Part shown: positions 1 to 22,334 of the stretch, piece by piece
Numbering within the stretch: position 1 is the first letter of the stretch
Layout: every line of letters begins with the position of its first letter
IMG/VR virus record: IMGVR_UViG_3300044613_001145
Coordinates: 1-24,430 of that record
Reading direction: 5' to 3' (one strand)
Source: a virus
DNA length: 24,430 bases
Position numbers and translations under genes: made by a program
The notes under the pieces: generated by a model
What the model saw: the letters and a program-made list of their open reading frames with translations, nothing else
What the model was told of the DNA's origin: nothing
Databases searched by the model: none

Positions 1-2
1 AG

Positions 3-803: not shown

Positions 804-805
804 AC

Positions 806-1198: not shown

Positions 1199-1202
1199 TC
1201 AC

Positions 1203-1222
1203 GGTAGCCCTTCGGGGTTACC
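1203..1222 (+). promoter_or_regulatory. Intergenic UUCG-tetraloop hairpin
   Basis: GGTAGCCC (1203-1210), loop TTCG (1211-1214), GGGTTACC (1215-1222). This gives an 8-bp stem with one G-U wobble, closed by a C(UUCG)G loop, an exceptionally stable class. It lies between the stop at 1198 and the ATG at 1235. The sequence after it is pyrimidine-rich (TTACCTTTTATC) but has no continuous T-run, so it may be a weak terminator or attenuator, a processing or stability element, or a translation-initiation structure for the next gene. Confidence 0.6.
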
Positions 1223-1234
1223 TTACCTTTTATC

Positions 1235-5384: not shown

Positions 5385-5386
5385 TC

Positions 5387-9056: not shown

Positions 9057-9065
9057 ATTTACTGC

Positions 9066-10451
9066 ATGACATACGCGGACTATCCAGACACGGCAAAAAA
9101 TAACGCAAGGCGCGCACTTGACCATAAGAAAAATGGTTCGAATTGTGGAACGCGTGTCGGCTGGTTAAGGGCAAACCAAATCGCAAACGGCGAAGGCTTG
9201 TCGGAAGATACCGTCCAAAGAACTTACAGTTTTCTTTCCCGTGCGGAAACGTATGACCAAGGAAAATACTTTGATGAAGATGGAAATGAAATTTGTGGTT
9301 CAATAATGTACGACGCATGGGGTGGTTCTGCGATGAGGGATTGGGCTGAAGCAAAGTTTAAAAAGATTGAAAGAGAAAAGGAAAGTAAAGCGATGGCAAA
9401 ATTTAATATTGATATTTTAGGGGAAATTTCTGAATCTGTTAATTCGTACAATGCAGTACAAAGGGAAATTAACAACGCGAAGGGCAAAGAAATTAATTTA
9501 GTTATATCTTCTGGAGGTGGCTCAGTTACCGAAGGAATGGCGATAGCTGATTTAATTGCTAATTACCCTGAGGAAACCACGGCAACAGGAATCGGACTCG
9601 TAGCGAGTATTGCAACGGTTGTACTGTTGTCTGCGGATAATGTTAAAATGACTGAGAACGCCTTCATGATGATTCACCGACCTTGGAGTTATACGATGGG
9701 TAACGCCGACGAACTTGAGGCAACGGCTGAATTGTTAGACAAGATGGAGGCAAAGTTATTGGACATTTATACCGCCTCCGTTTATAAGCGCAAAGGGAGA
9801 CAGAAAGACCTTGAAAACAAGATTACACAAATGATGGCAGCCGAAACATGGTTGACCGCACAGGAAGCATTAGAGTTTGGTTTCATTGATGAAATTGTAA
9901 AAGTTGGCGAAAAAAATATTGATTTATTACCGTTGCAAAATAGCCTAAACAAATTTCTAAATGTACCAGCTGCATTATTAACCAACAATAAAAAAAATGA
10001 TGACATGGGTAATTCCATTTTAGAAAAAATCAAATCGCTTTTAAATAATATGGACGATAAAGAAAATATCGAAAATGTTATGCAAGAAGAAGAGGAGATG
10101 AAAAAAGACGAACCAAAGAACGACGAGGTTGGCGATGCCATCCAAATGTTAAAAGACAATGGCTACTTTGTAATGTCTCCCGAAGAAATGGAGGCAATTC
10201 ATTCAAAGCAAAAAGAGGAAATGGAATCGATGTACAAGAAGACCGATGAACAAAAGAACTCGATTAATGAAATTGAAACAGTTCTGGAAACATTGGGCAA
10301 AGAATTAGTAGCCCTTAGGGCACAAGTTAAAAAAGGCGTTGGGCTTCCTTCGGGCGGGACAACGGCTGAAAAGATTATTGAAACAAAAGCAAAATTGAGT
10401 CCCTTTGATTCTTTTGCTTCATTAGTTAAATCTAAAATTTCACAAAGATAA
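9066..10451 (+). CDS. Head maturation protease (ClpP-like) fused to an N-terminal domain and a C-terminal scaffold-like region
   Basis: Processes the procapsid during head assembly. Three parts are visible. Residues 1-100 (YPDTAKNNARRALDH ... CGTRVGWLRANQIANGE ... CGSIMYDAWGG) form a domain often found in phage prohead protease and related proteins. Residues about 111-280 are ClpP-like: SSGGGSVTEG, nucleophile S181 in VASIA, H204 in MMIHRPW, and E260 in AAETWLTAQEA at the position of the ClpP catalytic Asp, a substitution I associate with phage members. Residues 310-461 are acidic and coiled-coil-like, resembling a scaffold. Methionines at residue 110 (nt 9393) and 314 (nt 10005) could start nested products. 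The stop overlaps the next ATG by 1 nt (TAATG). Protease identity is firm; scaffold role is inferred. Confidence 0.87.
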   Translation: MTYADYPDTAKNNARRALDHKKNGSNCGTRVGWLRANQIANGEGLSEDTVQRTYSFLSRAETYDQGKYFDEDGNEICGSIMYDAWGGSAMRDWAEAKFKKIEREKESKAMAKFNIDILGEISESVNSYNAVQREINNAKGKEINLVISSGGGSVTEGMAIADLIANYPEETTATGIGLVASIATVVLLSADNVKMTENAFMMIHRPWSYTMGNADELEATAELLDKMEAKLLDIYTASVYKRKGRQKDLENKITQMMAAETWLTAQEALEFGFIDEIVKVGEKNIDLLPLQNSLNKFLNVPAALLTNNKKNDDMGNSILEKIKSLLNNMDDKENIENVMQEEEEMKKDEPKNDEVGDAIQMLKDNGYFVMSPEEMEAIHSKQKEEMESMYKKTDEQKNSINEIETVLETLGKELVALRAQVKKGVGLPSGGTTAEKIIETKAKLSPFDSFASLVKSKISQR

Positions 10452-10924
10452 TGGCATTCAATCCAACCGCCCAGAATGAGAATGGCTTTTTACAATCCAA
10501 CACTTACGTTGGAAAAAATAGCCTTAATCGAACAAACCCCTATGCAAATGTTGACGGCTTAAACGCTGAGCAACTTTACGGGGTTGATACCTATGAAGAC
10601 CGTATTCCAGTATCGTTTAGTTGGCATATTGCTTCAGCTGGTGACAGAACTACGGTTACACCAATTTACGGTGTTACATCTGCTTCCGATTATTTAAAGT
10701 TCAACTTGATTGACGAAAGTGGTAATGAGGCTTACGGACGCTGGATATCTTCAGCACCTTCAGCAGCCTTTGACATTACAACCACCGCGTTAAACACGGC
10801 GAACGATTGGAAGGCATTCTTTGCTACCTCTAAGGCTGGGGCAAAGACAGAATTTTCATTTAAAATTGAATCAGCAGCAGTTTTAACAAACACAACTGCG
10901 ACGATTACTTACGCAAACCTTTAA
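10451..10924 (+). CDS. Putative capsid decoration / stabilisation protein
   Basis: A 157-residue beta-rich protein placed between the head protease and the major capsid protein, the usual slot of lambda gpD-type or other decoration proteins. The N-terminal 45 residues are polar and flexible-looking (FNPTAQNENGFLQSNTYVGK). The rest alternates short strands with Ser/Thr/Ala-rich turns and ends TNTTATITYANL. No signal peptide, cysteine or catalytic motif is present. Translation is coupled to the protease gene (TAATG) and the capsid gene follows after 12 nt. The role rests on position, size and composition rather than on a recognised family signature; a head fibre protein is the main alternative. 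Confidence 0.55.
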   Translation: MAFNPTAQNENGFLQSNTYVGKNSLNRTNPYANVDGLNAEQLYGVDTYEDRIPVSFSWHIASAGDRTTVTPIYGVTSASDYLKFNLIDESGNEAYGRWISSAPSAAFDITTTALNTANDWKAFFATSKAGAKTEFSFKIESAAVLTNTTATITYANL

Positions 10925-10936
10925 AATTAAAAACAA

Positions 10937-11920
10937 ATGGCATTAGTTGAAATAAGCCAACTTGACGTATCCTTTAGAGGTACAGAGGCAAACAACATAT
11001 TTTTAGAGCCTGTCTTTTTTGACGATGATTTACGCGGACAATTCCGTGTTCTTGGAAACGTCGCAAATAAAAAGAAAATGGTATTTGTCCAAGACCTTGA
11101 GAATATTGTAAGAAAATATTCTGGTTGCGGATTTAACCCAGTTGGCTCGGTTGACATTTATCAGCGTACAATCGACGTTGAAAAAATGAAGGTTGACCTT
11201 GAAATGTGCTGGGACGAATTTGAAGACACCGTCTTCGAGGAGTTATTGAAAACAGGAACAAGGCTTCCAGACGTATCGGGAACATTAATTGAAAATATCT
11301 TATTGACCCGTACACAACAGGCGATAAGAAATGACATTACCCGTCTTTCTTACTTTGGTTCACAGGCATCAAACAATCCTAATTATGATTCATTAGATGG
11401 ATTTTGGACAGTTTATTACCCGCAGTTAGTTGCCGATGATTTGATTCCAAGAACAAACACGGGCTCAGGTGCAGACCTTGCGGCTGGTGATGGCTTTGCG
11501 ATCCTTCGTGCAATCTACGACCAAGCACCTTTACAGTTAAAAGGTTTACCCGCTAACCAAAAGGTGTTTAATGTAACTGGTTCTGTATATTCTCAACTTC
11601 GTGAAGACATCGAAGAAGGCGGCGGCGGTGATTACGGTTTACTCCAGTTGATTAACGGGGTTGAGCAATTTACCTTCCGTGGTGTGCCTGTTGTTGCTCA
11701 ATGGAGATGGGATGACATCGCAACATCTTTGGGAACAACCAAGCCTCATTATGTGGAATACACAACCCCACAAAATAAGGTTATTGCAACCGACGTATTA
11801 AGCCCTGAGACGGCTTTGGAACTTTGGTATGACCAGAAGGACGAAAAGGTGTATATTAAGGCTCGTTTCAAGATGGGTGTTAATTATATCCACCATTCAT
11901 TAATCAGCGTAGGCTACTAA
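10937..11920 (+). CDS. Major capsid protein, HK97-fold type
   Basis: A 327-residue protein that builds the capsid shell. Features typical of Bacteroidota phage capsid proteins include an N-arm (LVEISQLDVSFRGTEANNIF), a long helix rich in acidic residues (EKMKVDLEMCWDEFEDTVFE), and a central RTQQAIRNDITRLSYFGS segment. These lead into a DGFW motif, a helix with TGSVYSQLREDIE, then GVPVVAQWRWDD and the C-terminal strand KVYIKARFKMGVNYIHHSL. The length fits the unprocessed or lightly processed HK97 fold. The ATG follows an A-rich leader (AATTAAAAACAAATGG) with no Shine-Dalgarno sequence, as expected in Bacteroidota, where highly expressed genes use such leaders. It lies after the protease and decoration genes, but the portal gene is downstream rather than upstream. 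Confidence 0.85.
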   Translation: MALVEISQLDVSFRGTEANNIFLEPVFFDDDLRGQFRVLGNVANKKKMVFVQDLENIVRKYSGCGFNPVGSVDIYQRTIDVEKMKVDLEMCWDEFEDTVFEELLKTGTRLPDVSGTLIENILLTRTQQAIRNDITRLSYFGSQASNNPNYDSLDGFWTVYYPQLVADDLIPRTNTGSGADLAAGDGFAILRAIYDQAPLQLKGLPANQKVFNVTGSVYSQLREDIEEGGGGDYGLLQLINGVEQFTFRGVPVVAQWRWDDIATSLGTTKPHYVEYTTPQNKVIATDVLSPETALELWYDQKDEKVYIKARFKMGVNYIHHSLISVGY

Positions 11921-11931
11921 TATAAGAATCA

Positions 11932-12480
11932 ATGAGTAGTATAACAAGCGGATGGCTTAACCAATGTGTCGATGGAACTTGCGCTGGTGGTATCGGTAAA
12001 CTTTATATCGCCAATGCAAATCAAGTTACTGGTTTTACCGCCAATGCCACGGCAGCGGTTACAGCGATTACAATGTCATCAACTGCCTCAGTATTTTACG
12101 AGGTGGAATTTCGGGACAATTCGGGAGCATTTACCGAAACCGTAACACAAGACCCAGACACTTTGTCTGTTGCAGTTGAGCAAAGCTTGGTAGGTATTAT
12201 AAACTGCCGTGACCAAGAGTTAAGAAACTTAATTCAAGACATGGCGGGACAGGCTTGCGGATTGGTTTGTGTACACGTGGAAAATACGGGTAATTATTGG
12301 ATTTGGGGTGCGGAAACCATTGGCGCAAAGAAAAGACCAGCAAGGCTAACAAGCGCTGAAGGTTTATCTGGTGCTTTGTTTACGGATTCAAATCAGGAAA
12401 CATTGACGATAACTTGCCGTACCACGAACAAAGCAAGATTCATAGTTGACGGTGCAACCGTAATGGGAGCGCTTGATTAA
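11932..12480 (+). CDS. Putative major tail tube protein
   Basis: A 182-residue beta-rich protein directly after the capsid gene. The order of elements suits a tail tube monomer: strands VFYEVEFRDNSGAFTETVTQ, a helix around DQELRNLIQDMAG, the strand-turn GLVCVHVENTGNYWIWGAE, and a C-terminal GLSGALFTDSNQETLTITCR hairpin. The last two blocks resemble the YWIFG and sGa..tD.n...lT signatures common in phage tube proteins. Five cysteines (two near residues 12-17) are unusual for a tube protein. It could instead be a head-associated protein. The identification is by pattern and position only. A short unknown gene separates it from the portal. Confidence 0.5.
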   Translation: MSSITSGWLNQCVDGTCAGGIGKLYIANANQVTGFTANATAAVTAITMSSTASVFYEVEFRDNSGAFTETVTQDPDTLSVAVEQSLVGIINCRDQELRNLIQDMAGQACGLVCVHVENTGNYWIWGAETIGAKKRPARLTSAEGLSGALFTDSNQETLTITCRTTNKARFIVDGATVMGALD

Positions 12481-12490
12481 AACATGAAAT

Positions 12491-12715
12491 ATGATAGTCA
12501 GGGAAAAAAGTAAGTTGATGATTTACGTCGGGGCTGACCCAACGGGAAAGGCGGGAATACTAAAGAAGGCTATCGGAAATTTTACACAGGCAGAATTAAG
12601 GGGTTGGTACAGTACCAACCCCACATCTGTTAGCCAACACGTTATTTTTACTCCCGAGAAAAAAACCTATGAGCCAAATAAAGAAGACGATTCAAGCAGT
12701 ACCGAACAGGGCTAA
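12491..12715 (+). CDS. Small hypothetical protein carrying an internal DNA palindrome
   Basis: A 74-residue protein of unknown function. It has a short N-terminal strand (SKLMIYVGADP), a central helix (AGILKKAIGNFTQAELRGWY) and an acidic, Ser-rich tail (KEDDSSSTEQG). Its last 47 nt overlap the start of the portal gene in another frame, so it is probably translated with it. A 23-bp palindrome at 12600-12622 is embedded in the coding sequence and encodes GWYSTNP. The protein is too short and too lacking in signature to name; being between the tube-like and portal genes, it may be a minor head or connector component. Confidence 0.6.
   Translation: MIVREKSKLMIYVGADPTGKAGILKKAIGNFTQAELRGWYSTNPTSVSQHVIFTPEKKTYEPNKEDDSSSTEQG
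12600..12622. repeat. Near-perfect 23-bp palindrome within a coding sequence
   Basis: GGGGTTGGTAC (12600-12610), one central A (12611), and GTACCAACCCC (12612-12622) give two perfect 11-bp arms. As RNA it would fold into a strong GC-rich hairpin; as DNA it could cruciform or bind a dimeric protein. No T-run follows, so an ordinary terminator is unlikely. It lies inside the 74-residue gene just upstream of the portal start. Confidence 0.75.
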
Positions 12716-14096
12716 CAGAAATTTAAAAAGAAACAATAGCCCTTTATTGGCTTCCGTTACTTTGGATACCTCAAACACTATGTTAGTGCAAGAGGATATT
12801 TTCAATGAACCTTCCAGAGAAAGGCTTGATTTTACAGGGGCTAAATGGGTTAGATTCTTTACCCAAAAAGATGACTTTTTAAAGAGTCTTATTGCCATTG
12901 TGAACAATTCCCCAACGCTTCGGCGTATCATTGAGGACAAGGTTAACATGGTTGTCGGTGATGGATTTATCCCAATGAAAGGAAAGTCTAATACCTTACT
13001 TACAACCTCGATGAAGGGAGAGGTAATTACGGATGATTCTTTAAATGAGATTGAGGAAGTTATTGGACAAGTTAACTTGCACGCACAAAACTTGCAAGAA
13101 GTGCTTGGCTCATTGGCTTTTGATTACGATGCTTTTGGAAATTGCTTTGCAGAAATTGTAAGGGGAAAGGTTGGTTCTCAGCCTTTCACCTACATTTACC
13201 ATGTCCCAGTTTATAACATTGGCATCAGGAAAGCCGAGGCGGATCAGATTATAAGGTCGGTTGGCATTTACGACAACTGGGAAGAAGTGCCACTTACAAC
13301 CGAGGGGACATATTACGAAAGGGAAGGGTTTAGAGAAATACCAATTTACCCAGAGTTCAAGAAATTAGAAGACGGAACGGAGCGTTCAATTATCCACGTC
13401 AAACAATATGCGGCTGGTTATTTCTACTTTGGTTTACCTGAGTGGATTGGGGCGAAGATGTGGGCAGAGATTGAATACAGAATCCAGCGTTTTAATACCA
13501 GTAAGTTTGAAAACGGCTTCATGCCTTCTGGAATATTACAATTCTTTGGTTCAATGACATCGGTTGAGGCAAAGAGCCTTGTTGAAGGTATTGAATCAAA
13601 GTTTACAGGAATGGGAAATAATCACAAGTTATTTGTTCAGGTTTTAAGGGACGAAAAATTAAAAGCTAATTGGATACCAACATCAAAGGAAAATGAAGGG
13701 GAATTTTTAAACCTTCAAAACCTTGCAGCTTCAGCGATTGTTGTGGCTAACCGTTGGTCAAAGTCTTTAGCAGGCTTTGCAACATCGGGACAACTTGGAA
13801 CAAACCAACAGATACGGCAAGAAATGGAATACTTGCAAAATACGGTTATTAAACCACGCCAAAACCTTATGTTATCAAAGATTATTAACCCTTTCTTAAA
13901 AGAAATTGGACTTTATAATCCAGCATTCACCGACGTGACGTTTGGTATTTCCAACACTTTACCCGTGTCTTTCATGGGTGATTTAAAGGTAGATGAAAAT
14001 CTTTCATTAAACGAGAAAAGAGAAATATTAGGGTATGCACCCGTAGAAATAGAACAAACAACCCCAACGAATGAGCCAATTAATACAACCGAGTGA
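12669..14096 (+). CDS. Portal protein
   Basis: Forms the dodecameric DNA entry ring at the capsid vertex. The 475-residue length and layout match HK97-type portals. Early helices contain DDFLKSLIAIVNNSPTLRRIIEDKVNMVVG, where portals carry the AI..RA....G block. Next come GSLAFDYDAFGNCFAEIVRG, a wing region ending YHVPVYNIGIR, the strand HVKQYAAGYFYFGLPEWIGA, and the long clip/stem helix with AKMWAEIEYRIQRFNTSKFENG. The C-terminal helical crown contains LAASAIVVANRWSKSLAGF and KPRQNLMLSKIINPFLKEIG. Its start overlaps the small upstream gene by 47 nt, and its end overlaps the connector gene by 26 nt. Its position after the capsid gene is the reverse of the usual order. Confidence 0.85.
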   Translation: MSQIKKTIQAVPNRANRNLKRNNSPLLASVTLDTSNTMLVQEDIFNEPSRERLDFTGAKWVRFFTQKDDFLKSLIAIVNNSPTLRRIIEDKVNMVVGDGFIPMKGKSNTLLTTSMKGEVITDDSLNEIEEVIGQVNLHAQNLQEVLGSLAFDYDAFGNCFAEIVRGKVGSQPFTYIYHVPVYNIGIRKAEADQIIRSVGIYDNWEEVPLTTEGTYYEREGFREIPIYPEFKKLEDGTERSIIHVKQYAAGYFYFGLPEWIGAKMWAEIEYRIQRFNTSKFENGFMPSGILQFFGSMTSVEAKSLVEGIESKFTGMGNNHKLFVQVLRDEKLKANWIPTSKENEGEFLNLQNLAASAIVVANRWSKSLAGFATSGQLGTNQQIRQEMEYLQNTVIKPRQNLMLSKIINPFLKEIGLYNPAFTDVTFGISNTLPVSFMGDLKVDENLSLNEKREILGYAPVEIEQTTPTNEPINTTE

Positions 14097-14613
14097 AGTA
14101 ATAGCTGGAGGGGTTGCACGTCCAACACCAGCAGATATAAGACTTGATAAGTCGCTTATTAGCCCACATATTCAAGACGCTGAGTTCCGTTGGATTGTTC
14201 CCGCCATTGGCTTAACTTTATATGATTCAATGGTTACAGACAAGGGAAGTTCAACCGCGTTTACATCAACTTCTTATCAGGATATTTGGGACAAGCAATT
14301 AAAATCTTTTTGCGCCAATGCTGTCTTATATGAAGCTTCGCCTTATATGGTCATGCAACTTGGCTCAAATGGTTTATATACCCTTGATAATGAATACGGA
14401 CAAAACGTCGGGGTTGATGGTTTAAAGTTTTATCAAGATACCTTGTTACAAAGGTTGGACGTAAAGAAAAAAAGGATTAAAGATTTGCTTTGCAATTATT
14501 CAACACCTTTGACCGCGTTTATACCCAGCGCCATTGGTTGCCCTGAGTCAACTTGCGATGAACACGAAGAAGAAATTACAGACATTTACAACACTTTAGG
14601 CATTGTGCTATGA
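14071..14613 (+). CDS. Head-tail connector / adaptor protein (DUF6712-like)
   Basis: A 180-residue helical protein that should attach below the portal. The pattern, from SEVIAGGVARPTPADIRL through SPHIQDAEFRWIVPAIGLTL to a helix with LKSFCANAVLYEASPYM, resembles the DUF6712/gp6-type connectors of Bacteroidota phages: a helix that reports residues for the portal interface, then a four-helix body. The C-terminus carries cysteines and an acidic run (CPESTCDEHEEEI). It overlaps the portal by 26 nt and the fibre start by 4 nt (ATGA at 14610). Directly following the portal, this is the slot expected of an adaptor, which supports the call. Confidence 0.65.
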   Translation: MSQLIQPSEVIAGGVARPTPADIRLDKSLISPHIQDAEFRWIVPAIGLTLYDSMVTDKGSSTAFTSTSYQDIWDKQLKSFCANAVLYEASPYMVMQLGSNGLYTLDNEYGQNVGVDGLKFYQDTLLQRLDVKKKRIKDLLCNYSTPLTAFIPSAIGCPESTCDEHEEEITDIYNTLGIVL

Positions 14614-17087
14614 TAGAGAAACCAAAAAAAGAAAGGCGATTCCTCAAGGCATTGGGGCGCGTCGGTGAGATATTAATTGAACAGGTTTTAATCAAAGTCG
14701 GGAGTAGTTTAATTAAAAGGATTGGAGGCAAAAAAACATTGCCTTCGATTCTTTTTTTATTCCTTTCGATTTCCCTTTTTGCCCAGTTTCCAAACACGGG
14801 CAATAAACAAAGATTAGGTTTCCAGACCACGGCTGACGGGTTGGTTTGGCGCGGTTCAATTTCTGATACAGCAAGCATTCAACCCGTATCAAATCAAAAC
14901 GCATGGGTTATTCTTGACACGGTTAACCTTAAAATATATTCCTTTGATTTTACTTCCAATGTTTGGAATCAAGTTGGTACGGGTGGCGGTTCTGCATTCA
15001 CCCAGCCTATTGACTCATTGTTTTTTAAAACAAGCGTATCCCCTAACAATGTGGACACGGCAAAAATGCGATGGGATTCCGAGTTAGGTACAGTGGTTTT
15101 GGGAATGTACGATGCCGTGCCCAATGAATTAGGATTTAAAAACTTTTGGTTAGTTAAGAATCAAACAGGATCAACTATTACAAAAAATAGCCTTGTTTAC
15201 GCATCGGGAACAGTTGGCGCAAGTGGAAGGATATTGGTATCAAAATTTATAGCCAACGGAACAATAGATGCAAAGTATTTATTAGGAATAACTGCTCATG
15301 ATTTAAGTAATGGCGAAGATGGCTACGTTATTTCTTTTGGCAAGATAAGGCAAGTTAATACTGATACCTTTGCGGCTGGAGCAATCCTTTACCCTTCGCC
15401 AACTACGGCTGGTGTTTGGACGGATGTTGAACCAGTTGCTCCTAACATTGATTTGCCTATTGGCTTTTGCATAAATTCATCTTCAAACAATGGTACAATT
15501 TCAATTCGTGTAGCATCGGGTTATAGTTTAAACGAATTGCACAACGTGGCAATTACCTCACCAGTTGAAAAATCAAGTTTATTTTATTCTGATGGATTAT
15601 GGCGCGATACAACTGCCGCACTTTTGGTAAGCGACACGGCTTCGATGCTTACGCCTTATTTTAAAAAATCAGATACCACATCGTTAAACCTAACCTCAAG
15701 GTTTGCCGCAAAGCTAAATATTTCCGATACCTCTTCCATGCTTACAAATTACCTTAGGTCAGGGGTTGCAGCTTCCACATATCTGCCATTGACAGGGGGA
15801 ACATTAACGGGGGCGTTAAATGTAAATGGAACATCAACGTTAAATTTTACAAATGTATATGGTAAAAATACCTATGTTCCTTTTAATGTTGGAACAGGTG
15901 AACAATCTATTTTTAATGTGGGCGCATATTTAAGAGGTGGAACAGTTATGATATTTCCAGATTCTTCTTTAGCTGGAAGTTCTGGTAATTTATTTTTTGC
16001 AAATTCAAATATTTTAGGTGTTGAATTTTCTGCAAGAGGTAGCGGGATTAGAAATTATATAAAACAAGGAGGAGATAATAATAGAAATTCTTTAGCCTTA
16101 TATACAAGTGATATAGGTCAGCAAAATACTAATAGATTATATATTAACTATAATGGAGATATTGGAATTAATGATGATACACCTATTTATAAACTTGACG
16201 TTAACGGAACACTCGGTGTAACTGGTGCAACTACGTTATCAAGTACATTAAGTGGTACAACAGGAACATTTAAAGCATTGACAATAAATAATAATGTTAG
16301 TAGTGGAGAAGGTGTATTATCTATTCTTAGCAATACTTTTAATGATGCTAATAAAATACAATTTGGGGATGTTTCTGGAATAAGAAGAGAAATATTATTA
16401 CCCACAGGTGTGAGTAGTTTACAATTTAGAACATACGCACTTGGAGGCACTGAAGGAGGTTATTCTTTTTATACAAGACGGAATCCAAATGCCGAACAAT
16501 TAGCATTTAACATAGATTTTGATGGTAATTCTAATTTTTACGGCACACTCGGTGTAACAGGCGCAACGACATTAACAGGCGCACTCACCGTAAACAATGC
16601 CACGGTATTAAATGAAGGCTCAGGTGACTTTGACACGCGCATTGAAAGTGACGGGAACGCCAACATGGTTTTCGTGGATGCTTCAACCGACCGCGTAGGC
16701 ATTGGCACGGGTTCACCTTCAAAGACCCTTGATGTTAATGGTGAGGTTAAAATTGCAACGGTGACAACAACTCCAACGGCTTTACTTGGCAAAGATGCAA
16801 GTAATGTGGTTGGAGAGGTTACCACGGTGGCACAAACAGGATTAATGACAAGGGGTTCAACAACAGCAACAACTGGAACGCCTTCAGCTGTTTTTAACGT
16901 CACTCATGGGCTTGGTTCAAACCCTACTGCGGTTATAGTGACAAGTGCTGGTATTGCTGGTGCAGAAAAAATAATATTTGAGGTTTATGCCAAAAATTCA
17001 ACTACTTTCAGTGTTCAAGCTTGGAATTATGATGGCACGGAGGCGGCATCAACATCGGTAACAATCTATTGGTTAGCAATAAAATAA
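14610..17087 (+). CDS. Long tail-fibre-like protein with an export-signal-like N-terminus and mosaic internal modules
   Basis: An 825-residue protein, Thr/Ser/Gly/Asn-rich and repetitive as in receptor-binding fibres. Residues 1-43 are basic. Residues 44-59 (LPSILFLFLSISLFAQ) look like a Bacteroidota signal peptide core with an A-Q junction at 58/59, unusual for a virion fibre. Two copies of SDT.SMLT.Y lie near 340-390, YLPLTGGTLTGALNVNG follows near 395, and two similar blocks of the type VGI....P...LDVNG (nt 16159-16206 and 16689-16740) follow. The C-terminal domain starts with FNVTHGLGSNPTAVIVTSAG. There is no S74 chaperone domain. The middle (about 15836-16540) is more AT-rich than the flanks, with a direct repeat at its end, suggesting module exchange. 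A TTG at 14739 preceded by GGAGG at 14724-14728 is an alternative start. Confidence 0.7.
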   Translation: MIEKPKKERRFLKALGRVGEILIEQVLIKVGSSLIKRIGGKKTLPSILFLFLSISLFAQFPNTGNKQRLGFQTTADGLVWRGSISDTASIQPVSNQNAWVILDTVNLKIYSFDFTSNVWNQVGTGGGSAFTQPIDSLFFKTSVSPNNVDTAKMRWDSELGTVVLGMYDAVPNELGFKNFWLVKNQTGSTITKNSLVYASGTVGASGRILVSKFIANGTIDAKYLLGITAHDLSNGEDGYVISFGKIRQVNTDTFAAGAILYPSPTTAGVWTDVEPVAPNIDLPIGFCINSSSNNGTISIRVASGYSLNELHNVAITSPVEKSSLFYSDGLWRDTTAALLVSDTASMLTPYFKKSDTTSLNLTSRFAAKLNISDTSSMLTNYLRSGVAASTYLPLTGGTLTGALNVNGTSTLNFTNVYGKNTYVPFNVGTGEQSIFNVGAYLRGGTVMIFPDSSLAGSSGNLFFANSNILGVEFSARGSGIRNYIKQGGDNNRNSLALYTSDIGQQNTNRLYINYNGDIGINDDTPIYKLDVNGTLGVTGATTLSSTLSGTTGTFKALTINNNVSSGEGVLSILSNTFNDANKIQFGDVSGIRREILLPTGVSSLQFRTYALGGTEGGYSFYTRRNPNAEQLAFNIDFDGNSNFYGTLGVTGATTLTGALTVNNATVLNEGSGDFDTRIESDGNANMVFVDASTDRVGIGTGSPSKTLDVNGEVKIATVTTTPTALLGKDASNVVGEVTTVAQTGLMTRGSTTATTGTPSAVFNVTHGLGSNPTAVIVTSAGIAGAEKIIFEVYAKNSTTFSVQAWNYDGTEAASTSVTIYWLAIK
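16209..16238 (+). repeat. Direct repeat copy 1 in fibre gene
   Basis: ACACTCGGTGTAACTGGTGC continuing to about 16238 encodes TLGVTGATTL and matches the copy at 16545-16574 with a few third-position changes. The copies are 336 bp (112 codons) apart, in frame. They could recombine to delete or swap the module between them. Confidence 0.75.
16545..16574 (+). repeat. Direct repeat copy 2 in fibre gene
   Basis: ACACTCGGTGTAACAGGCGC continuing to about 16574. The first 14 nt are identical to copy 1 at 16209, the rest nearly so. It lies at the downstream edge of the AT-rich stretch, consistent with a recombination boundary. Confidence 0.75.
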
Positions 17088-17094
17088 ACACAAA

Positions 17095-17688
17095 ATGAAA
17101 AAAATATTATTCTTTTTATTCTTTCTTCCTTCTTTTGCCATTGCACAGGATACGGTTATCATTTCCAAAATCTTTGCAGATGATACCCTTTGGAGCGTAA
17201 AAAAGGTGTACGCTAATCAGGATGTTCAAATAAAATTGTTTGAAGATTCATCTGCCATTTATTACTACATTTTAAACGATGTTGTGGATGAGGCACGGAA
17301 GATGACCGATGCTTTTAATATTTACGAAAACCGTAACAAGTTTTTAAACGCCTTGCATAAACTTGACAAAAGCATGGTTAATGGGAAAGTGGAAAGTGCT
17401 TTTGATTACCTTTCTAATTTATACGCCTCTTTCTGGTTAGGAAATTACAATGCCATTGCTAATGGGACAAAGGTTCTTGCTGGGGCTGAGATATTTGTAA
17501 ATAAGAATAGCGAATTAAGGATTAAGATTGGCGAAAGCATTAACAAGCCTTTCATTGCCATTGCCGACACTTATGGCATCATTGTAAATTATCCAAACAC
17601 GGGGGACAGATTTGTTATTTACAAAACAAATGAAAAGTCGTTCAAGGATTTAGATAACAAATTAATCCTCAGAAAGCAAAAGAAATGA
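17095..17688 (+). CDS. Secreted protein of unknown function (signal peptide)
   Basis: A 197-residue protein with a clear type I signal peptide: MKK, a hydrophobic core rich in Phe and Leu, and an AIA-Q junction at 17/18, then the mature chain starting QDTVIISK. There is no lipobox cysteine, so it is not a lipoprotein. The mature part is mixed alpha/beta with a helical centre (EARKMTDAFNIYENRNKFLNALHKL), and the C-terminal strands end in a basic KLILRKQKK. It starts 7 nt after the fibre gene and overlaps the holin start by 4 nt (ATGA). It should be in the periplasm or outside the host. By position it may affect the envelope or lysis; a spanin role cannot be shown because no spanin signature is visible. 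Confidence 0.7.
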   Translation: MKKILFFLFFLPSFAIAQDTVIISKIFADDTLWSVKKVYANQDVQIKLFEDSSAIYYYILNDVVDEARKMTDAFNIYENRNKFLNALHKLDKSMVNGKVESAFDYLSNLYASFWLGNYNAIANGTKVLAGAEIFVNKNSELRIKIGESINKPFIAIADTYGIIVNYPNTGDRFVIYKTNEKSFKDLDNKLILRKQKK

Positions 17689-18089
17689 AATCAGTTATAA
17701 TAAATATTTTAAAACTTGGCTACGACGGCATTGTTTATTCCATTTGTTGCGGAGTGCTTTTCTCGTTTTTCCTTCCCATCAAGGATTTTTTGATTTTTAC
17801 AATATTTGTAGTTTTTGCAGACACGGTGACGGGTATCATGGCGGCAAAGAAAAGAAATGAGCCAATAACAAGCAAAGGTTTATATCGGACTTCTCAAAAG
17901 GTGGTTGTTTACTTTGTCGGTATCATGATTTTTCACGGAGCAAGTGTTACTTTTGGTTTACCTTCACAAATAGTTTACTCAGTTAGTTTCTTGATATCAT
18001 TTACAGAACTTTACAGTATTTCAGAAAACATAAAGTCTATAACTGGAGTAAACATTGGAACATTAGTATTAAAATTTTTCAGACGTTAA
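17685..18089 (+). CDS. Phage holin (toxin secretion / phage lysis holin type)
   Basis: A 134-residue inner-membrane protein that permeabilises the membrane at the end of infection and releases the endolysin. Four hydrophobic segments lie near 14-30, 34-54, 72-88 and 94-112. The signature FADTVTGIMAAKKRNEPITS (residues 44-63) followed by SKGLYRTSQKVVVYFVGI matches the phi29/Cph1-type holin family (PF05105), where D..TG..AA and a basic loop precede the third helix. It is coupled to the secreted-protein gene by ATGA and followed after 12 nt by a small unknown and then the endolysin, the typical lysis cassette layout. Confidence 0.82.
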   Translation: MKSVIINILKLGYDGIVYSICCGVLFSFFLPIKDFLIFTIFVVFADTVTGIMAAKKRNEPITSKGLYRTSQKVVVYFVGIMIFHGASVTFGLPSQIVYSVSFLISFTELYSISENIKSITGVNIGTLVLKFFRR

Positions 18090-18101
18090 AATAATTATAA
18101 A

Positions 18102-18398
18102 ATGATTGAAACAAGTTTAAAAGGAGCATTAAAAGACTCCGATACAATTAAATCTCCCATTGGTGAGATTGCCTGTTATTCCCTTAACTTTGCCGAACTT
18201 GCTGGTGAAATTAATGTTTTCATGGATGGTTCAAAAGTGAAATTTACATGGCGAGAATATGTTAAACTTGCACAAATTATTTGGGACAAAATCAAGGAGA
18301 CAAGCCGTGAATGTGCTGGGAAGGAGATTTCGGTTACTTTACCGCCCAAATTTTCTTTGATTTCCGCAGCTTTTTCGCTCATCGGGTTTAAATTATAG
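18102..18398 (+). CDS. Small protein between holin and endolysin, unknown function
   Basis: A 98-residue protein, not recognised. It has an N-terminal polar region, a helix around FTWREYVKLAQIIWDKIKET, and a C-terminal hydrophobic stretch (FSLISAAFSLIGFKL) which is borderline for membrane association. There are two cysteines and no signal peptide. It begins 12 nt after the holin with an A-rich leader (AATAATTATAAAATG-like) and lies 76 nt before the amidase start. By position it may modulate lysis (antiholin or accessory), but the sequence gives no motif to support a role. Confidence 0.55.
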   Translation: MIETSLKGALKDSDTIKSPIGEIACYSLNFAELAGEINVFMDGSKVKFTWREYVKLAQIIWDKIKETSRECAGKEISVTLPPKFSLISAAFSLIGFKL

Positions 18399-18431
18399 GC
18401 GCAGACAGATTCGCTACCTTATGCACCTGAG

Positions 18432-18459
18432 AAGGGGGTTTATTGATTTAGACTCCCTT
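18432..18459 (+). promoter_or_regulatory. Weak hairpin upstream of endolysin start
   Basis: AAGGGGG (18432-18438) pairs with CTCCCTT (18453-18459) over 7 bp with one G-U pair, around a 14-nt loop. It ends about 15 nt before the endolysin ATG at 18475. The sequence that follows is A-rich, not a T-run. A translational or stability role for the endolysin message is possible; it could also be chance. Confidence 0.3.
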
Positions 18460-18474
18460 TAAAAATATATAAAT

Positions 18475-19137
18475 ATGAAAGCAAATCAATTTTGTGTTTT
18501 CCTTGATGCTGGACATGGCGGAGTTGACCCAAAGAAAAAGTTACCTTTTAATTATACGACTTACCCTTCAAAGTGCTTCCAGCATAACAACTCAATCTTC
18601 CACGGTTACGGCTGGTTCTTTGAAGGCGTGTTCAACAGGGAAGTGGCGGCAAAGATTGAGCAATATTTAAAAGATTGGGGAATGTCGGTTATCAATGTTT
18701 ACGACCCTGTTATTGATGTAAGCCTAAACAAACGTGTATTAAAGGCAAACATGAACGCCCAGAACTATGAAGCTTCGTTGTTCCTGAGTATACATGGCAA
18801 CGCAGCAGGATCAACAACGGCAAGAGGCTTTGAAGTGTTCACATCAATCGGGCAAACAAAGGCTGATATTTACGCCACCTTCCTATTCAATGAGGTAAAA
18901 GAGGCTTTTCCAAAATGGTTGTTTCGAAGCGATAAAATTGACAATGACCCAGACAAGGAGGCTAATTTCTTTGTACTGAGCCAAACCAGTATGCCAGCCG
19001 TGTTATCTGAAAACGGATTCTTTACCAATTACAAAGATGCCGTCATGATGTTCGACCCAGCCTTCCAAGATACATTGGCGCTTTGTCATGCACGGGCGGT
19101 GGTTGATTACGCAAAGACGCAAGGGGTAATGTTTTAA
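18475..19137 (+). CDS. Endolysin, N-acetylmuramoyl-L-alanine amidase (Amidase_3)
   Basis: Cleaves the amide bond between N-acetylmuramic acid and L-alanine in host peptidoglycan to release progeny. The 220-residue single-domain protein shows the zinc and catalytic pattern of Amidase_3: H14 in FLDAGHGG, E50 in WFFEGVFN, H107 in LFLSIHGNA and E179 in VLSENGFFTN. It has no signal peptide and no binding domain, so it should depend on the holin for access. The chain ends in an Ala-rich helix. This is the last rightward gene; a hairpin follows 7 nt after its stop. The family call is firm. Confidence 0.9.
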   Translation: MKANQFCVFLDAGHGGVDPKKKLPFNYTTYPSKCFQHNNSIFHGYGWFFEGVFNREVAAKIEQYLKDWGMSVINVYDPVIDVSLNKRVLKANMNAQNYEASLFLSIHGNAAGSTTARGFEVFTSIGQTKADIYATFLFNEVKEAFPKWLFRSDKIDNDPDKEANFFVLSQTSMPAVLSENGFFTNYKDAVMMFDPAFQDTLALCHARAVVDYAKTQGVMF

Positions 19138-19144
19138 AATGGAA

Positions 19145-19168
19145 AGGGTTGACGCAACTGCCAACCCT
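19145..19168. terminator. Hairpin between convergent transcription units
   Basis: AGGGTTG (19145-19151) and CAACCCT (19162-19168) form a 7-bp stem with a 10-nt loop, 7 nt after the endolysin stop. It sits between the rightward late unit and the leftward unit ending at 19219. Neither side has a long T-run, although leftward the sequence after the stem is TTCCATTTTAAAAC. It is the best candidate for a bidirectional terminator; the stem is modest. Confidence 0.5.
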
Positions 19169-19218
19169 CTAATTCACCACTCCTAAACTAATTAACATAA
19201 ACAAACGTAATCAATTTC

Positions 19219-19506
19219 TTAATTTATAATTTGATTTATAATTTTCAAAGATAAATTTGTGACCGTGTCACCGTCCGTGCTTTTATACAACCGATAAGCA
19301 ATAGTTAACATTCGTCCTTTGTCCATTGACTCAATAGGCGGCTTCCCGTTTGGAAGTAATGGCTCAAGATAAAACTTTAATAATGCAATTTTGCTATTTA
19401 AACCGTCGGAAAATCTGATCGGCTTCGGGTAAGTTTTAGCAATCCTTTCAATTTCCTTCCAAGTGCTTATCTCAATTCCGTCGATTAATTCACTATTTCT
19501 TTTCAT
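19219..19506 (-). CDS. Hypothetical protein, 95 residues
   Basis: An unrecognised small basic helical protein. The chosen start is the ATG at 19506 (MKRNSELIDGIEISTW), which overlaps the end of the resolvase gene by 14 nt; a longer reading from 19536 would add ten residues inside the resolvase without an obvious leader. Visible features are WKEIERIAKTYPKPIRF, a helix near residues 35-50 and DKGRMLTIAYRLYKS. No cysteine, membrane segment or catalytic motif. Being the last gene of the leftward operon, co-translated with a RuvC-like resolvase, it may be a partner in recombination or processing, but that is only a guess from context. Confidence 0.6.
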   Translation of the reverse strand: MKRNSELIDGIEISTWKEIERIAKTYPKPIRFSDGLNSKIALLKFYLEPLLPNGKPPIESMDKGRMLTIAYRLYKSTDGDTVTNLSLKIINQIIN

Positions 19507-19981
19507 GTTTTTGGTAATTTTTAGCCTGTAAAGCAAGAGTAAAACAATCGATTTCGTCCTGACTTATTTTGGCAGTTTTAAAATTTGGTTCAAACTTGTA
19601 ACCTTCGCTTTGGAAGATTTTTAAAAATATTTCTTTTCCCCATTTCTTCCCCTTTTGCTCAGGGCTTATGTTGTAACCCTCGTAACCATTTTCCTTAATC
19701 CATTCATAGGCAATACGACTTGCACCTTGATTCATGCCCACGTTTCGGGACATACGGGAAAGGATAGCGCGATTAATAGATGAATTAAAGGTTACGTTTT
19801 GAAGGCTGGAATCTTCCACCATTACAACGGGGTTTTCATATTGCGCCCACTTTGGAACATCAAGGATAAAATCCACGAACCTTTTATATTTCGTGAATTT
19901 TACCTCTTTGTTTGATTGAATAATGCAAGCCGCCATTCCGTTTATCCTTATTGCTGGGTCAACCCCGATGTATGTCCTCAA
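19493..19981 (-). CDS. RuvC-like Holliday junction resolvase
   Basis: Likely cuts four-way DNA junctions formed during phage replication and recombination, before packaging. The 162-residue protein shows an RNase H-fold RuvC pattern: D8 in YIGVDPAIRINGMAACII, E56 in NPVVMVEDSS, and D142/D145 in SQDEIDCFTLAL with the Asp-x-x-Asp spacing seen at the end of RuvC. A QGASRIAYEW helix lies between, as in RuvC. The start is a TTG at 19981 that overlaps the upstream stop (TTGA), so translation is coupled to the membrane protein gene. The end overlaps the 95-residue gene. The family is fairly secure from the acidic residues and their spacing. Confidence 0.72.
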   Translation of the reverse strand: MRTYIGVDPAIRINGMAACIIQSNKEVKFTKYKRFVDFILDVPKWAQYENPVVMVEDSSLQNVTFNSSINRAILSRMSRNVGMNQGASRIAYEWIKENGYEGYNISPEQKGKKWGKEIFLKIFQSEGYKFEPNFKTAKISQDEIDCFTLALQAKNYQKHEKK

Positions 19982-20514
19982 AGTGTTATCGTTTGAAACG
20001 AAGTTACATATCCTTTACTTTCTTTTGGTGCATCTTCCGTGACTTTTTTTACAACGACCCTTCTTTTGCGTCTTTTGATTACTTTTGGCTCAACTAAACC
20101 GTATGCCTCAACCCCTTTGTTAACAAAGTTTATTTCTAAAAGGTATCCAAAGCAGACGATTGTTCCCACAAAAAAGAACATTGTAATAAATTCCGCTCCA
20201 GAATACTTTTCCATTAACCCGAAGAAAACTTCGATTAAGGCTATTACCGTTGCGCCTAAGGCTATTTTAGGCGGGAAAGGGCTTCTTCCCTTAGTAGGGT
20301 TTAAAAAGTCCATAAAAACGACTGCAAAGCGTCCAAGTTGTAAAATGGTTGAAGCGGTGATTGCAACCCAAAAGTTAATCGGTAAAAAGATGGCGGTTAA
20401 ATAGGCATTAATGCCGTAGGTAAGGACGATTGTCAAAAGCATGATTGTAGGAATGTTGTCGCTGATGCTTTCAAAAGTCCATTTAAACTGGGTGTTGGTG
20501 AAATTCTTTTCCAT
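19978..20514 (-). CDS. Membrane protein with four predicted transmembrane helices and basic cytoplasmic tail
   Basis: A 178-residue protein, not recognised. Hydrophobic segments lie near 22-42, 46-69, 83-103 and 107-131. The C-terminal 45 residues are basic (KVIKRRKRRVVVKK) and end in a polar tail, so N- and C-termini are probably both cytoplasmic by the positive-inside rule. The ATG at 20514 has the conserved A-rich leader, and just upstream is the 20-nt leader repeat. The end overlaps the resolvase TTG by 4 nt. A membrane protein next to a resolvase and small early genes could be a superinfection-exclusion or host-takeover factor, but there is no motif to support this. Confidence 0.65.
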   Translation of the reverse strand: MEKNFTNTQFKWTFESISDNIPTIMLLTIVLTYGINAYLTAIFLPINFWVAITASTILQLGRFAVVFMDFLNPTKGRSPFPPKIALGATVIALIEVFFGLMEKYSGAEFITMFFFVGTIVCFGYLLEINFVNKGVEAYGLVEPKVIKRRKRRVVVKKVTEDAPKESKGYVTSFQTITL

Positions 20515-20574: not shown

Positions 20575-20769
20575 TTATAAACTATTACATAATTCAATAA
20601 ACTCAGATTCTGGTAAACGTTCCATCAATATATTTAAAACAATATCCTGAACTATGTTTGCAGCTGATGTAAAATCATTCATTAATTTTTTTAATTCAAC
20701 TATCAAATCGTTAGTTGGTAAAGCGTTTAATCTTGAAGTTGCGATTGATGTAAATTCTGAAGCTGTCAT
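20575..20769 (-). CDS. Small conserved-type phage protein, 64 residues
   Basis: A 64-residue helical protein with no recognised function. Sequence layout: SEFTSIATSRLNAL, a helix DLIVELKKLMNDF, a hydrophobic helix NIVQDIVLNILMERL, and a C-terminal PESEFIELCNSL of a kind seen in small uncharacterised phage proteins. It starts at an ATG (20769) with the A-rich leader AAAAAACAACAAAATG and is bounded by promoter-like DNA upstream (20812-20856) and a hairpin terminator downstream, so it may form a one-gene transcript. There is no cysteine pair, no DNA-binding motif, and no membrane segment long enough to be convincing. Confidence 0.6.
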   Translation of the reverse strand: MTASEFTSIATSRLNALPTNDLIVELKKLMNDFTSAANIVQDIVLNILMERLPESEFIELCNSL

Positions 20770-20793: not shown

Positions 20794-20815
20794 TATCGTT
20801 TGTTTGTTTCGATAT
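20793..20815 (-). promoter_or_regulatory. Small inverted repeat in the leader of the 64-residue gene
   Basis: ATATCG (20793-20798) and CGATAT (20810-20815) are separated by 11 nt, forming a 6-bp stem or a two-half-site operator. It lies next to the 45-bp element. It is not present beside the other copy of that element. Confidence 0.4.
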
Positions 20816-20856
20816 GTAAATATATAAATAAATATTTAAACAAAAAAATATTTACA
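20812..20856 (-). promoter_or_regulatory. 45-bp promoter/operator-like element, copy A
   Basis: Begins 43 nt upstream of the ATG at 20769 and is 43/45 identical to 22243-22287. It has perfect 9-bp inverted arms TGTAAATAT (20815-20823) and ATATTTACA (20848-20856) separated by 24 bp. Read leftward, TATATTTAC (20824 to 20816) is close to the Bacteroidota -7 motif TAnnTTTG, and TTTG about 16 nt upstream of it could serve as the -33 motif. It may be an early promoter, an operator, or both. Confidence 0.6.
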
Positions 20857-20874
20857 CAAATAAATAAAAAAAAG

Positions 20875-21720
20875 TTAAAAAACATTGTAATCTTTCTTCA
20901 AAGGGAAGTTATCCCGTTTGATTTGCCAGTATTCCGCCATTAATGAGGCACGAAACTTGTAATCCCTGTCGGTATGGTAGCCCGATTTGTAAACACATTT
21001 ACAAATAGATTCGTATAACTTAATCCCTTTGATTTTGTAATTTGCCTTTTTACAGGCGGCGTATCTTCCAGAGTTAAGAACACCAGCCCAAAGGTTCATA
21101 CCTTCTTCCGTGCTGGATGCTTTCATAAACTTTGCCTTAATGTACTTATCTTTTCCCCTGATGACCTCACGGGTCTTGTAGGTTACCGATTGTTTTCCTT
21201 TCAAAGCCTTAACCCCTCCAGCGTTTGCGTGCTTGCGCCAAAGTTCTGTTTCAACTCCTTGACTGGTTGCCTCGATGATGAAAAAGGAATAAATCATTGA
21301 TACAGGGAAATCAGTTAAAACGTGGACGTTCATTAACATACTTTCATAACAATAAGCAAGGTATATGCGACGAAGCTTTGCCCGGTCAACTTTTGCAAGG
21401 TTTCGAAAACCGCGACCTTCCAATGTTTGCCTTAATTGTAGCCCTGATAACTTTCTAACCTCCCAGCCGTACGAACGAGATCCGTAGGCGCTTTCATCAA
21501 CTTCCTTTTTTTCCTCTTTGCCCTGGATAGTAAGCGATGTTATTTTGTGAACATACACCGTATCACGCTGAATGATGGGAACAAAAGAAGTATAATTGTA
21601 ATTTGTGTTTATCGGGGAATAAATCAACCCGATGACAAAAGCAATGCCAATGCCAGCGGCTACCTGATACGGCAGCCGCGTATTTTGTGGAACGTAAGTT
21701 TCTATTATTGGCTCTTTCAT
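20875..21720 (-). CDS. Membrane-anchored glucosaminidase-like peptidoglycan hydrolase
   Basis: Probably cleaves glycan strands between GlcNAc and MurNAc (glucosaminidase, GH73-like). The 281-residue protein has a short N-terminus, one hydrophobic segment at about 17-34 (AAGIGIAFVIGLIYSPIN-like) that would anchor it with the rest in the periplasm, a charged linker (60-90) and a C-terminal domain. The core FFIIEATSQGVETELWRKHA holds the likely catalytic E150 with the family's spacing. Then come YKTREVIRGKDKYIKAKFMK and a C-terminal helix around TEEGMNLWAGVLNSGRYAAC. Its start is 2 nt after the preceding stop. It lies outside the lysis cassette, in the early-looking region. The domain call is moderately secure; the role is uncertain. 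Confidence 0.65.
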   Translation of the reverse strand: MKEPIIETYVPQNTRLPYQVAAGIGIAFVIGLIYSPINTNYNYTSFVPIIQRDTVYVHKITSLTIQGKEEKKEVDESAYGSRSYGWEVRKLSGLQLRQTLEGRGFRNLAKVDRAKLRRIYLAYCYESMLMNVHVLTDFPVSMIYSFFIIEATSQGVETELWRKHANAGGVKALKGKQSVTYKTREVIRGKDKYIKAKFMKASSTEEGMNLWAGVLNSGRYAACKKANYKIKGIKLYESICKCVYKSGYHTDRDYKFRASLMAEYWQIKRDNFPLKKDYNVF

Positions 21721-21722
21721 GA

Positions 21723-21986
21723 TTATTGCATTACTGGTTCAGCGTAAAAGTGTCCGCCATCGTATTCAATCGTTTCGTCATTGGCATCTGCAATCACGTT
21801 TCCGTCGCAATCCCTTACAAGTCCACCCCATGAAAACTCATCCTCAGGGAAATAATTTTCATTAAGCATCTTTTCGTAAACCTTTTCAACTGCGTTGCGC
21901 TTAGAATAGGCAGCTACTTCTTCGCATAAATCTTGATACCTTTTGGCGTTGCCAAAGTACATAACTGAATAAATTTGCTTTTCCAT
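21723..21986 (-). CDS. Small hypothetical protein, 87 residues
   Basis: An acidic 87-residue protein of unknown function. It has an N-terminal strand (EKQIYSVMYF), a helix (RNAVEKVYEKMLNENYFP), acidic loops and a DCDGNVIADANDETIEYDGG stretch that looks like a beta hairpin, ending HFYAEPVMQ. Small proteins with this pattern occur in Bacteroidota phage early regions, but I know no assigned role. The ATG at 21986 is preceded by AACTAAAAACAACCAAAATG, the same A-rich leader as its neighbour upstream, so it is well expressed by the look of it. It is co-directional with and closely spaced from the glucosaminidase. Confidence 0.65.
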   Translation of the reverse strand: MEKQIYSVMYFGNAKRYQDLCEEVAAYSKRNAVEKVYEKMLNENYFPEDEFSWGGLVRDCDGNVIADANDETIEYDGGHFYAEPVMQ

Positions 21987-21997
21987 TTTGGTTGTTT

Positions 21998-22219
21998 TTA
22001 GTTGTTAAAAGAAATTTCAAATTCTACTAACCCTGATTTAGATAACATATTTTCAATATCAAGACAAATGTCTTCCATGTCTTCCTCAAACGTGGTAAAA
22101 GTCCAGCAATTTGATGCAACTTGTTCTTCTTGAATATCAAAAATACAAGCAATGTTAAGGTCTCTAATTATATCTTGAGCCTTTAGTGTTTCTCTTAGTG
22201 AAGTGGTTAATGTAATCAT
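21998..22219 (-). CDS. Small hypothetical protein, 73 residues
   Basis: A 73-residue acidic protein of unknown function (MITLTTSLRETLKAQDIIRD at the N-terminus, FTTFEEDMEDICLDIENMLS later). The ATG at 22219 is chosen because AAAAACAACCAAAATG directly precedes it, matching the next gene's leader; an upstream TTG at 22243 falls inside the 45-bp element and would not be a likely start. The chain looks like a small alpha/beta fold. It is the first gene after the promoter-like copy B and a terminator, so it probably begins a new transcript with the 87-residue and glucosaminidase genes. Confidence 0.6.
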   Translation of the reverse strand: MITLTTSLRETLKAQDIIRDLNIACIFDIQEEQVASNCWTFTTFEEDMEDICLDIENMLSKSGLVEFEISFNN

Positions 22220-22242
22220 TTTGGTTGTTTTTGTTATTTTCA

Positions 22243-22287
22243 ATATGTAAATATATAAATAAATAATTAAATAAAAAAATATTTACA
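22243..22287 (-). promoter_or_regulatory. 45-bp promoter/operator-like element, copy B
   Basis: 43/45 identical to copy A at 20812-20856. The 9-bp arms TGTAAATAT (22246-22254) and ATATTTACA (22279-22287) are again 24 bp apart, so arm spacing is conserved. It ends 24 nt upstream of the ATG at 22219 and begins 12 nt after the upstream terminator's T-run, the place expected for the promoter of a new transcript. A -7-like TATATTTAC lies at 22255-22247. Confidence 0.6.
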
Positions 22288-22298
22288 ACATTATTTAT

Positions 22299-22329
22299 AA
22301 AAAAAATCCCGTACCAATGAGATACGGGA
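22299..22329 (-). terminator. Rho-independent terminator (leftward)
   Basis: Read leftward: TCCCGTA - TCTCATTGG - TACGGGA (22329 to 22307), then eight T (22306 to 22299). It lies 5 nt after the stop of the 44-residue gene. It ends the upstream early operon just before copy B of the 45-bp element. Confidence 0.8.
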
Positions 22330-22334
22330 CAAAA

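What the first reader, a model, noticed from the sequence alone, without database searches (positions are those of the whole stretch)
20812..22287. Duplicated 45-bp element with a fixed-spacing inverted repeat, before two early genes
20812-20856 and 22243-22287 match at 43/45 positions although the neighbouring genes are unrelated. Both carry perfect 9-bp arms TGTAAATAT/ATATTTACA with a 24-bp spacer, about three helical turns centre to centre. Both precede a leftward gene, and the second follows a terminator. This fits a shared promoter with a dimeric regulator site, and may be the control switch of the early region.
Basis: partly seen in the sequence, partly recalled or inferred. Interest (0 to 1): 0.7.

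Follow-up and report, generated by a model that had tools for sequence, protein, structure and literature searches.

The report
Repeated phage promoter, not dimer operator
The duplicated 45-bp element is one of three copies of a phage-specific promoter that uncultured viruses of (probably) Flavobacteria-like bacteria place in front of many unrelated small genes; the inverted repeat that drew attention is mostly a by-product of two separate promoter parts.

Summary
In detail: 43/45 identity, perfect 9-bp arms, 24-bp spacer. It is real biology, not chance. The window is part of a complete 40.5-kb circularly permuted phage genome that carries three such elements, and about 130 distinct contexts in related contigs keep the same layout. 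An unbiased set, found through flanking proteins rather than through the repeat, gives a conserved core AAATATTTTTTT-N17-TAWWTTTA. It points the same way as the gene behind it, whose ATG lies 17-75 nt downstream in 147 of 152 contexts. The right arm is the -7 box of a Bacteroidota sigma-A promoter with G-5 replaced by A: at the same site (P3) a diverged clade has the canonical TATCTTTG, and in a second promoter of these phages TTTA and TTTG interchange in otherwise near-identical upstream sequence. The arms do not co-vary and may lose complementarity, so a dimeric regulator is not supported. With the upstream block, however, -5 is always A, never G, so this is a separate promoter class, perhaps activator- or UP-dependent. 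It precedes 41 unrelated gene families, and the P1 copy is present or absent as a module. No sigma factor, integrase or HTH_3 repressor was found. By the way: a covarying kissing-loop RNA/attenuator not in Rfam.

The parts
20815..20856 (-). Promoter element P1 (42 bp, transcribed leftward)
   Evidence: Exact copy; homologue present in 42 of 80 loci found through the neighbouring 281-aa protein
20842..20856 (-). Upstream block TGTAAATATTTTTTT (about -44 to -30)
   Evidence: Near-invariant in 47 unique elements; AAATATTTTTTT part kept even where TGT is CAC, CAT, TAT or TGA
   Evidence: Same position as canonical TATCTTTG at the P3 locus of diverged relatives; G/A interchange at another promoter; consensus TAHHTTTG from PMC6847099
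20793..20815 (-). Small inverted repeat ATATCG-N11-CGATAT in the P1 leader (hairpin or operator); a change to ACCG/CGGT on both sides is seen at P3 of two relatives
   Evidence: Sequence; relatives
20575..20769 (-). First gene behind P1 (64 aa, unknown); an accessory gene absent from most relatives
22246..22287 (-). Promoter element P2 (42 bp, transcribed leftward)
22273..22287 (-). Upstream block TGTAAATATTTTTTT of P2
22248..22255 (-). -7 box TATATTTA of P2
   Evidence: PMC6847099
21998..22219 (-). First gene behind P2 (73 aa, unknown), accessory
22306..22330 (-). Intrinsic terminator upstream of P2, separating it from the preceding operon
20875..21720 (-). 281-aa protein between P2 and P1, used as anchor for the unbiased P1 set

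Best explanation
Each element is the core of a leftward phage promoter read by the host's Bacteroidota RNA polymerase. Its right arm is a variant -7 box, TAWWTTTA (-12 to -5). About 17 bp upstream lies a T-tract block AAATATTTTTTT (about -41 to -30), usually preceded by TGT, in place of a -33 box. Transcription starts about 4-5 nt after the -7 box, giving short leaders (about 42 nt at P1, about 23 nt at P2). Three copies (P1, P2, P3) re-start transcription along the leftward early region, P2 and P3 directly after terminators, and each feeds exchangeable small accessory genes. The upstream block is inferred to compensate for the missing G at -5, either by docking the RNAP alpha subunit (UP-like) or a phage activator. 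The TGTAAAT/ATTTAC inverted repeat is largely a by-product of these two blocks resembling each other's complement. Shown: conservation, orientation, position before genes, fixed spacing, lack of arm covariation, TTTA/TTTG interchange at another promoter of the same phages, never G with this block. Inferred: start site, use of host RNAP, role of the block.
For: Layout AAATATTTTTTT-N17-TANNTTTA in 133 distinct family contexts; for TGTAAATATTTTTTT the distance to TANNTTTAC is 17 in 157 contexts and other values only in a handful, nearly all unrelated. Unbiased sets by flanking protein: 42 of 80 loci (P1) and 61 of 77 (P3) have it, all at the same spacing. In 147 of 152 contexts an ORF of at least 40 aa (or one running off the locus) starts 17-75 nt downstream, median 44; other side 61 of 152. 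In diverged relatives the P3 site, after the same terminator, carries TATCTTTG at the same distance. At P0-type promoters with near-identical upstream sequence the -7 box ends in G in 31 and A in 31 distinct cases. The F. johnsoniae -7 box is TAHHTTTG, with start 4-5 nt on, a weak -33 and AT-rich motifs at -18 and -28 (PMC6847099). Other promoters of the same phage have TAHHTTTG. Arms: no compensation. 41 unrelated first-gene families behind the element.
Against: No transcription data. G at -5 is nearly invariant in host promoters, yet is never present here with the block, so plain host sigma-A recognition is not guaranteed. TGT of the left arm is conserved in 121 of 134 contexts, more than a generic AT-rich UP element would need. 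A 7-bp complementary run between two such AT-rich blocks arises by chance in only about 4-7% of simulations, so some dyad role is not excluded. The contexts are related sequences, so counts are not independent events.
Confidence: 0.8

Rival explanations
1. Middle-promoter-like switch: a phage-encoded activator (or a factor altering sigma) binds the TGTAAATATTTTTTT block and recruits host RNAP to the non-canonical TAWWTTTA box, so P1-P3 fire after the canonical TAHHTTTG promoters of the same phage.
For: A at -5 fixed with the block (133:0) while free (31:31) at P0-type promoters. Block near-invariant over 47 unique elements. One match in 257 Gb of prokaryotic genomes, apparently chance, so phage-specific. 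A 56-aa basic protein with a possible ribbon-helix-helix arrangement, present wherever sequence coverage allows in element-bearing phages and behind its own canonical promoter in one clade.
Against: No regulator shown; the 56-aa model has no PDB fold match and its co-occurrence is confounded with the whole genome lineage. A UP-like alpha-CTD site explains the block as well.
Confidence: 0.3
2. Dimeric or looping operator: one repressor or activator binds both arms three helical turns apart and controls all three promoters at once.
For: Perfect arms in P1-type copies; core GTAAAT/ATTTAC kept in most copies; spacing fixed; dyad somewhat unlikely by chance (4-7%).
Against: No compensatory changes: pair 1:42 is T.G in 32 of 80 and C.A in 4; 8:35 is complementary in only 18 of 80; variants CACAAAT, TGAAAAT or TTTAT keep the promoter with the partner arm unchanged. 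The fixed spacing follows from promoter geometry. At P0-type promoters an upstream GTAAA occurs as often with TTTG as with TTTAC. No HTH_3 repressor or integrase in six relatives.
Confidence: 0.1
3. Replication origin iterons or a recombination/duplication relic rather than a promoter.
For: Three similar direct copies within about 5 kb of an early region with replication-like genes.
Against: Always oriented with, and 17-75 nt before, a gene start; canonical promoter at the same site in relatives; copies 1.2-5 kb apart, not clustered.
Confidence: 0.03

Closest known systems
Bacteroidota primary sigma (sigma-ABfr / sigma-A) promoters, TTTG / TAHHTTTG (F. johnsoniae, F. psychrophilum, Bacteroides)
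   Same: T-12, A-11, H at -10/-9, T-8 to T-6; position before genes; poor -33 box; AT-rich positions near -18 and -28
   Different: A instead of G at -5 in every copy; an invariant AAATATTTTTTT block at about -41 to -30
UP elements of strong bacterial promoters (E. coli consensus recalled from memory: AAAWWTWTTTT...)
   Same: AAATATTTTTT fits AAAWWTWTTTT letter for letter
   Different: Sits closer to the -7 box than E. coli UP elements; additional conserved TGT; no binding data in Bacteroidota
T4 middle promoters (MotA box replacing -35; from memory)
   Same: A phage-specific box replaces the upstream promoter element while a -10-like box is kept
   Different: No MotA/AsiA homologue identified; box sequence and spacing differ; activator not shown

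Membership tests
Bacteroidota sigma-A promoter | TA at -12/-11 and TTT at -8 to -6 | tested here: met
   47 of 47 unique elements
Bacteroidota sigma-A promoter | G at -5 (TAHHTTTG) | tested here: not met
   A in all family contexts with the block; but A and G interchange at P0-type promoters
Bacteroidota sigma-A promoter | Lies upstream of a gene in the gene's orientation | tested here: met
   147 of 152 contexts
Bacteroidota sigma-A promoter | TTTG -33 box 19-21 bp upstream | tested here: not met
   T-tract without G at that place; the -33 box is weak in F. johnsoniae too
Bacteroidota sigma-A promoter | Transcription start 4-5 nt after the box | not testable with these tools
   needs 5'-end mapping
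Inverted-repeat operator of a dimeric regulator | Arms kept complementary through change | tested here: not met
Inverted-repeat operator of a dimeric regulator | Fixed arm spacing | tested here: met
   157 contexts at one spacing, but promoter geometry explains it equally
UP element | AAAWWTWTTTT-type sequence (consensus from memory) | tested here: met
   AAATATTTTTTT
UP element | Alpha-CTD binding and activation | not testable with these tools
   needs footprinting or in vitro transcription
T7-like phage promoter | Phage-encoded single-subunit RNAP | tested here: inconclusive
   PF00940 not found in six relatives, but its control did not ring
Promoter of a phage-encoded sigma factor | Sigma factor gene (PF04542) in the phage | tested here: not met
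   absent in six relatives, control rings in 10 genomes

The most novel reading that the evidence does not exclude
P1-P3 define a dedicated second promoter class of a large, uncultured Bacteroidota phage group: a phage factor binding TGTAAATATTTTTTT redirects host RNA polymerase to TAWWTTTA boxes that the host alone reads poorly, giving a temporal switch that any accessory gene can join by landing behind the element.
Probability: 0.3. Interest if true: 0.6.

Novelty: new variant of a known kind. Interest (0 to 1): 0.42.

Why it matters
Promoters of Bacteroidota phages are little mapped; my searches of the paper library found none described for Flavobacterium phages. This gives a testable promoter signature for an uncultured phage group, shows that the -7 box tolerates G to A at -5 in nature, and offers a simple marker (AAATATTTTTTT-N17-TAWWTTTA) for finding the accessory, possibly host-takeover or counter-defence, genes placed behind it (41 families). 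It also warns that an eye-catching inverted repeat can be two promoter boxes.

Tried and rejected
Host-regulator site: the strict motif occurs once in 257 Gb of prokaryotic genomes, in an unrelated context. Phage sigma factor, integrase and HTH_3 repressor: none found; T7-like RNAP: control failed. 56-aa ribbon-helix-helix-like protein as regulator: AF2 gives two helices at pLDDT 78 but no PDB match, and co-occurrence is confounded with lineage; kept only as a candidate. Cultured relatives: no DNA match for window 1-20000, no match for the 281-aa and 244-aa proteins, terminase at 47% to Riemerella phages. A half-site pair with other spacing at P0 as a shared operator: upstream GTAAA is equally common with TTTG and TTTAC boxes, so rejected. 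Literature searches on TGTAAA operators and on kissing-loop attenuators gave nothing.

Full report
OBSERVATION. The two copies are as described: 43/45 identical, exact arms TGTAAATAT/ATATTTACA with N24, each before a leftward ORF, and a terminator upstream of the second. Two matches within 3 mismatches compare with 0.12 expected.

GENOME CONTEXT. The window is 100% identical to IMGVR_UViG_3300043786_000470 (40,658 bp), which spans the whole window in two circularly permuted pieces that overlap by 127 bp, so it is a complete genome. Leftward genes run from about 18130 to 8817; the rightward half holds the protease, portal and other structural genes. Promoter elements lie at 10413 (P1 = window 20815), 11844 (P2 = window 22246) and 15259 (P3, beyond the window). 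Complete relatives also have three, all pointing the same way. No close cultured relative was found; the terminase is nearest to Riemerella phages at 47%. Perfect TAHHTTTG boxes elsewhere in the genome point to a Bacteroidota host.

UNBIASED CONSERVATION. Because searching with the repeat selects for the repeat, I collected loci through the neighbouring proteins: the 281-aa protein for P1 and the 244-aa protein for P3. The element follows in 42 of 80 and 61 of 77 loci. In the rest of the P1 loci the next gene, or another gene, follows directly, so the promoter at P1 is an optional module; at P3 the rest have another promoter or an inserted gene. Across 47 unique elements (read in transcription direction) TGTAAATATTTTTTT is near-invariant, the spacer varies, and TAWWTTTA(C) is invariant. 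The distance is always 17 bp: 157 distinct contexts, other distances only in a handful of nearly all unrelated contexts.

WHAT THE RIGHT ARM IS. In F. johnsoniae the -7 box is TAHHTTTG, G-5 nearly invariant, start 4-5 nt further, -33 weak (PMC6847099). The right arm fits this with A for G. Three lines confirm it. (i) In diverged relatives the P3 site, right after the same terminator, holds TATCTTTG at the same distance instead of TAAATTTA. (ii) A fourth leftward promoter (P0) has the box TATATTTAC in the window's phage and TATCTTTG in a relative, each followed by the same kind of leader hairpin. (iii) Over P0-type promoters, with upstream sequences that are near-identical in several pairs, the last base is G in 31 and A in 31 distinct cases.

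WHY NOT A DIMER OPERATOR. Over 80 distinct elements the arm pairs do not compensate: 1:42 complementary in 43, 8:35 in 18; CACAAAT, CATAAAT, TGAAAAT or TTTAT variants keep the rest of the layout. The 7-bp complementarity would arise between such AT-rich blocks in 4-7% of trials. At P0-type promoters an upstream GTAAA is as common with TTTG as with TTTAC boxes, so the dyad is not the selected feature there.

A DISTINCT CLASS. With the AAATATTTTTTT block the base at -5 is A in all 133 distinct contexts that pass the family filter and never G; the four G contexts lie in contigs that are not known relatives (only 6 stretches with G in all viral contigs, against more than 120). So the block and the A go together. 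The likeliest reading is a promoter whose weak -7 box is compensated by the upstream block, through alpha-CTD (UP-like) or a phage activator. This step is inferred.

ROLE. 147 of 152 contexts have an ORF starting 17-75 nt downstream, and the first genes fall into 41 unrelated families, median 87 aa. The element thus works as a plug-in promoter for accessory genes along the leftward region, re-starting transcription after terminators at P2 and P3. No sigma factor, integrase or HTH_3 repressor was found in six relatives; the RNAP test was inconclusive.

SIDE FINDING. P0-type promoters drive a leader RNA of about 90 nt: a 5' hairpin whose loop pairs with the loop of an intrinsic terminator just before the first gene. 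52 distinct RNAs have at least 6 Watson-Crick pairs (50 at least 7), with 19 different loop motifs; swapping partners gives 7 or more pairs in about 3%; ATG within 40 nt after the terminator in 52 of 52. No Rfam family reaches its gathering score in the copy of this phage. It looks like an attenuator or antitermination RNA and deserves its own study.

LIMITS. No expression data; contexts are related and unevenly sampled; start sites are inferred from the box.

Noticed in passing
L210:1131-1230 (+) = G005/L190 about 18233-18134 (-), beyond the window; many relatives (e.g. L211, L226, L248 two copies, L266 two copies): About 90-nt leader RNA behind P0-type promoters: 5' hairpin loop pairs with the loop of the terminator just before the first gene, with heavy compensatory change (GTGCAG/CTGCAC, GGTAGGAG/CTCCTACC, CTAGACA/TGTCTAG, GTGGACGC/GCGTCCAC, AGTTGAGGTT/AACCTCAACT); 52 distinct RNAs, no Rfam family. 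Probably an attenuator or antitermination RNA; some loci carry two copies.
   Followed up: partly
P1 site in relatives, e.g. L290 (with element) against L317, L331, L354 (without): Promoter, or promoter plus a small gene, is present or absent between the same two conserved genes (281 aa and 178 aa), so the promoter behaves as an insertable module.
   Followed up: partly
G005 22153-22323 (+), L191:2153-2323: 56-aa protein with a possible ribbon-helix-helix arrangement, conserved in element-bearing phages, own canonical TATATTTG promoter in one clade; candidate phage regulator, fold not confirmed.
   Followed up: partly
G005 18306-18400 (-), L190: Odd tRNA-like gene reported with a four-base anticodon 'aaga' (ARAGORN) in the divergent region between the rightward and leftward operons, with its own TATCTTTG promoter.
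   Followed up: no
window 20875-21720 (-): 281-aa protein with an N-terminal hydrophobic stretch and a weak muramidase/FlgJ-like C-terminal half (phrog_12727, E 1e-4), in the early region rather than next to the amidase at 18475-19137.
   Followed up: no
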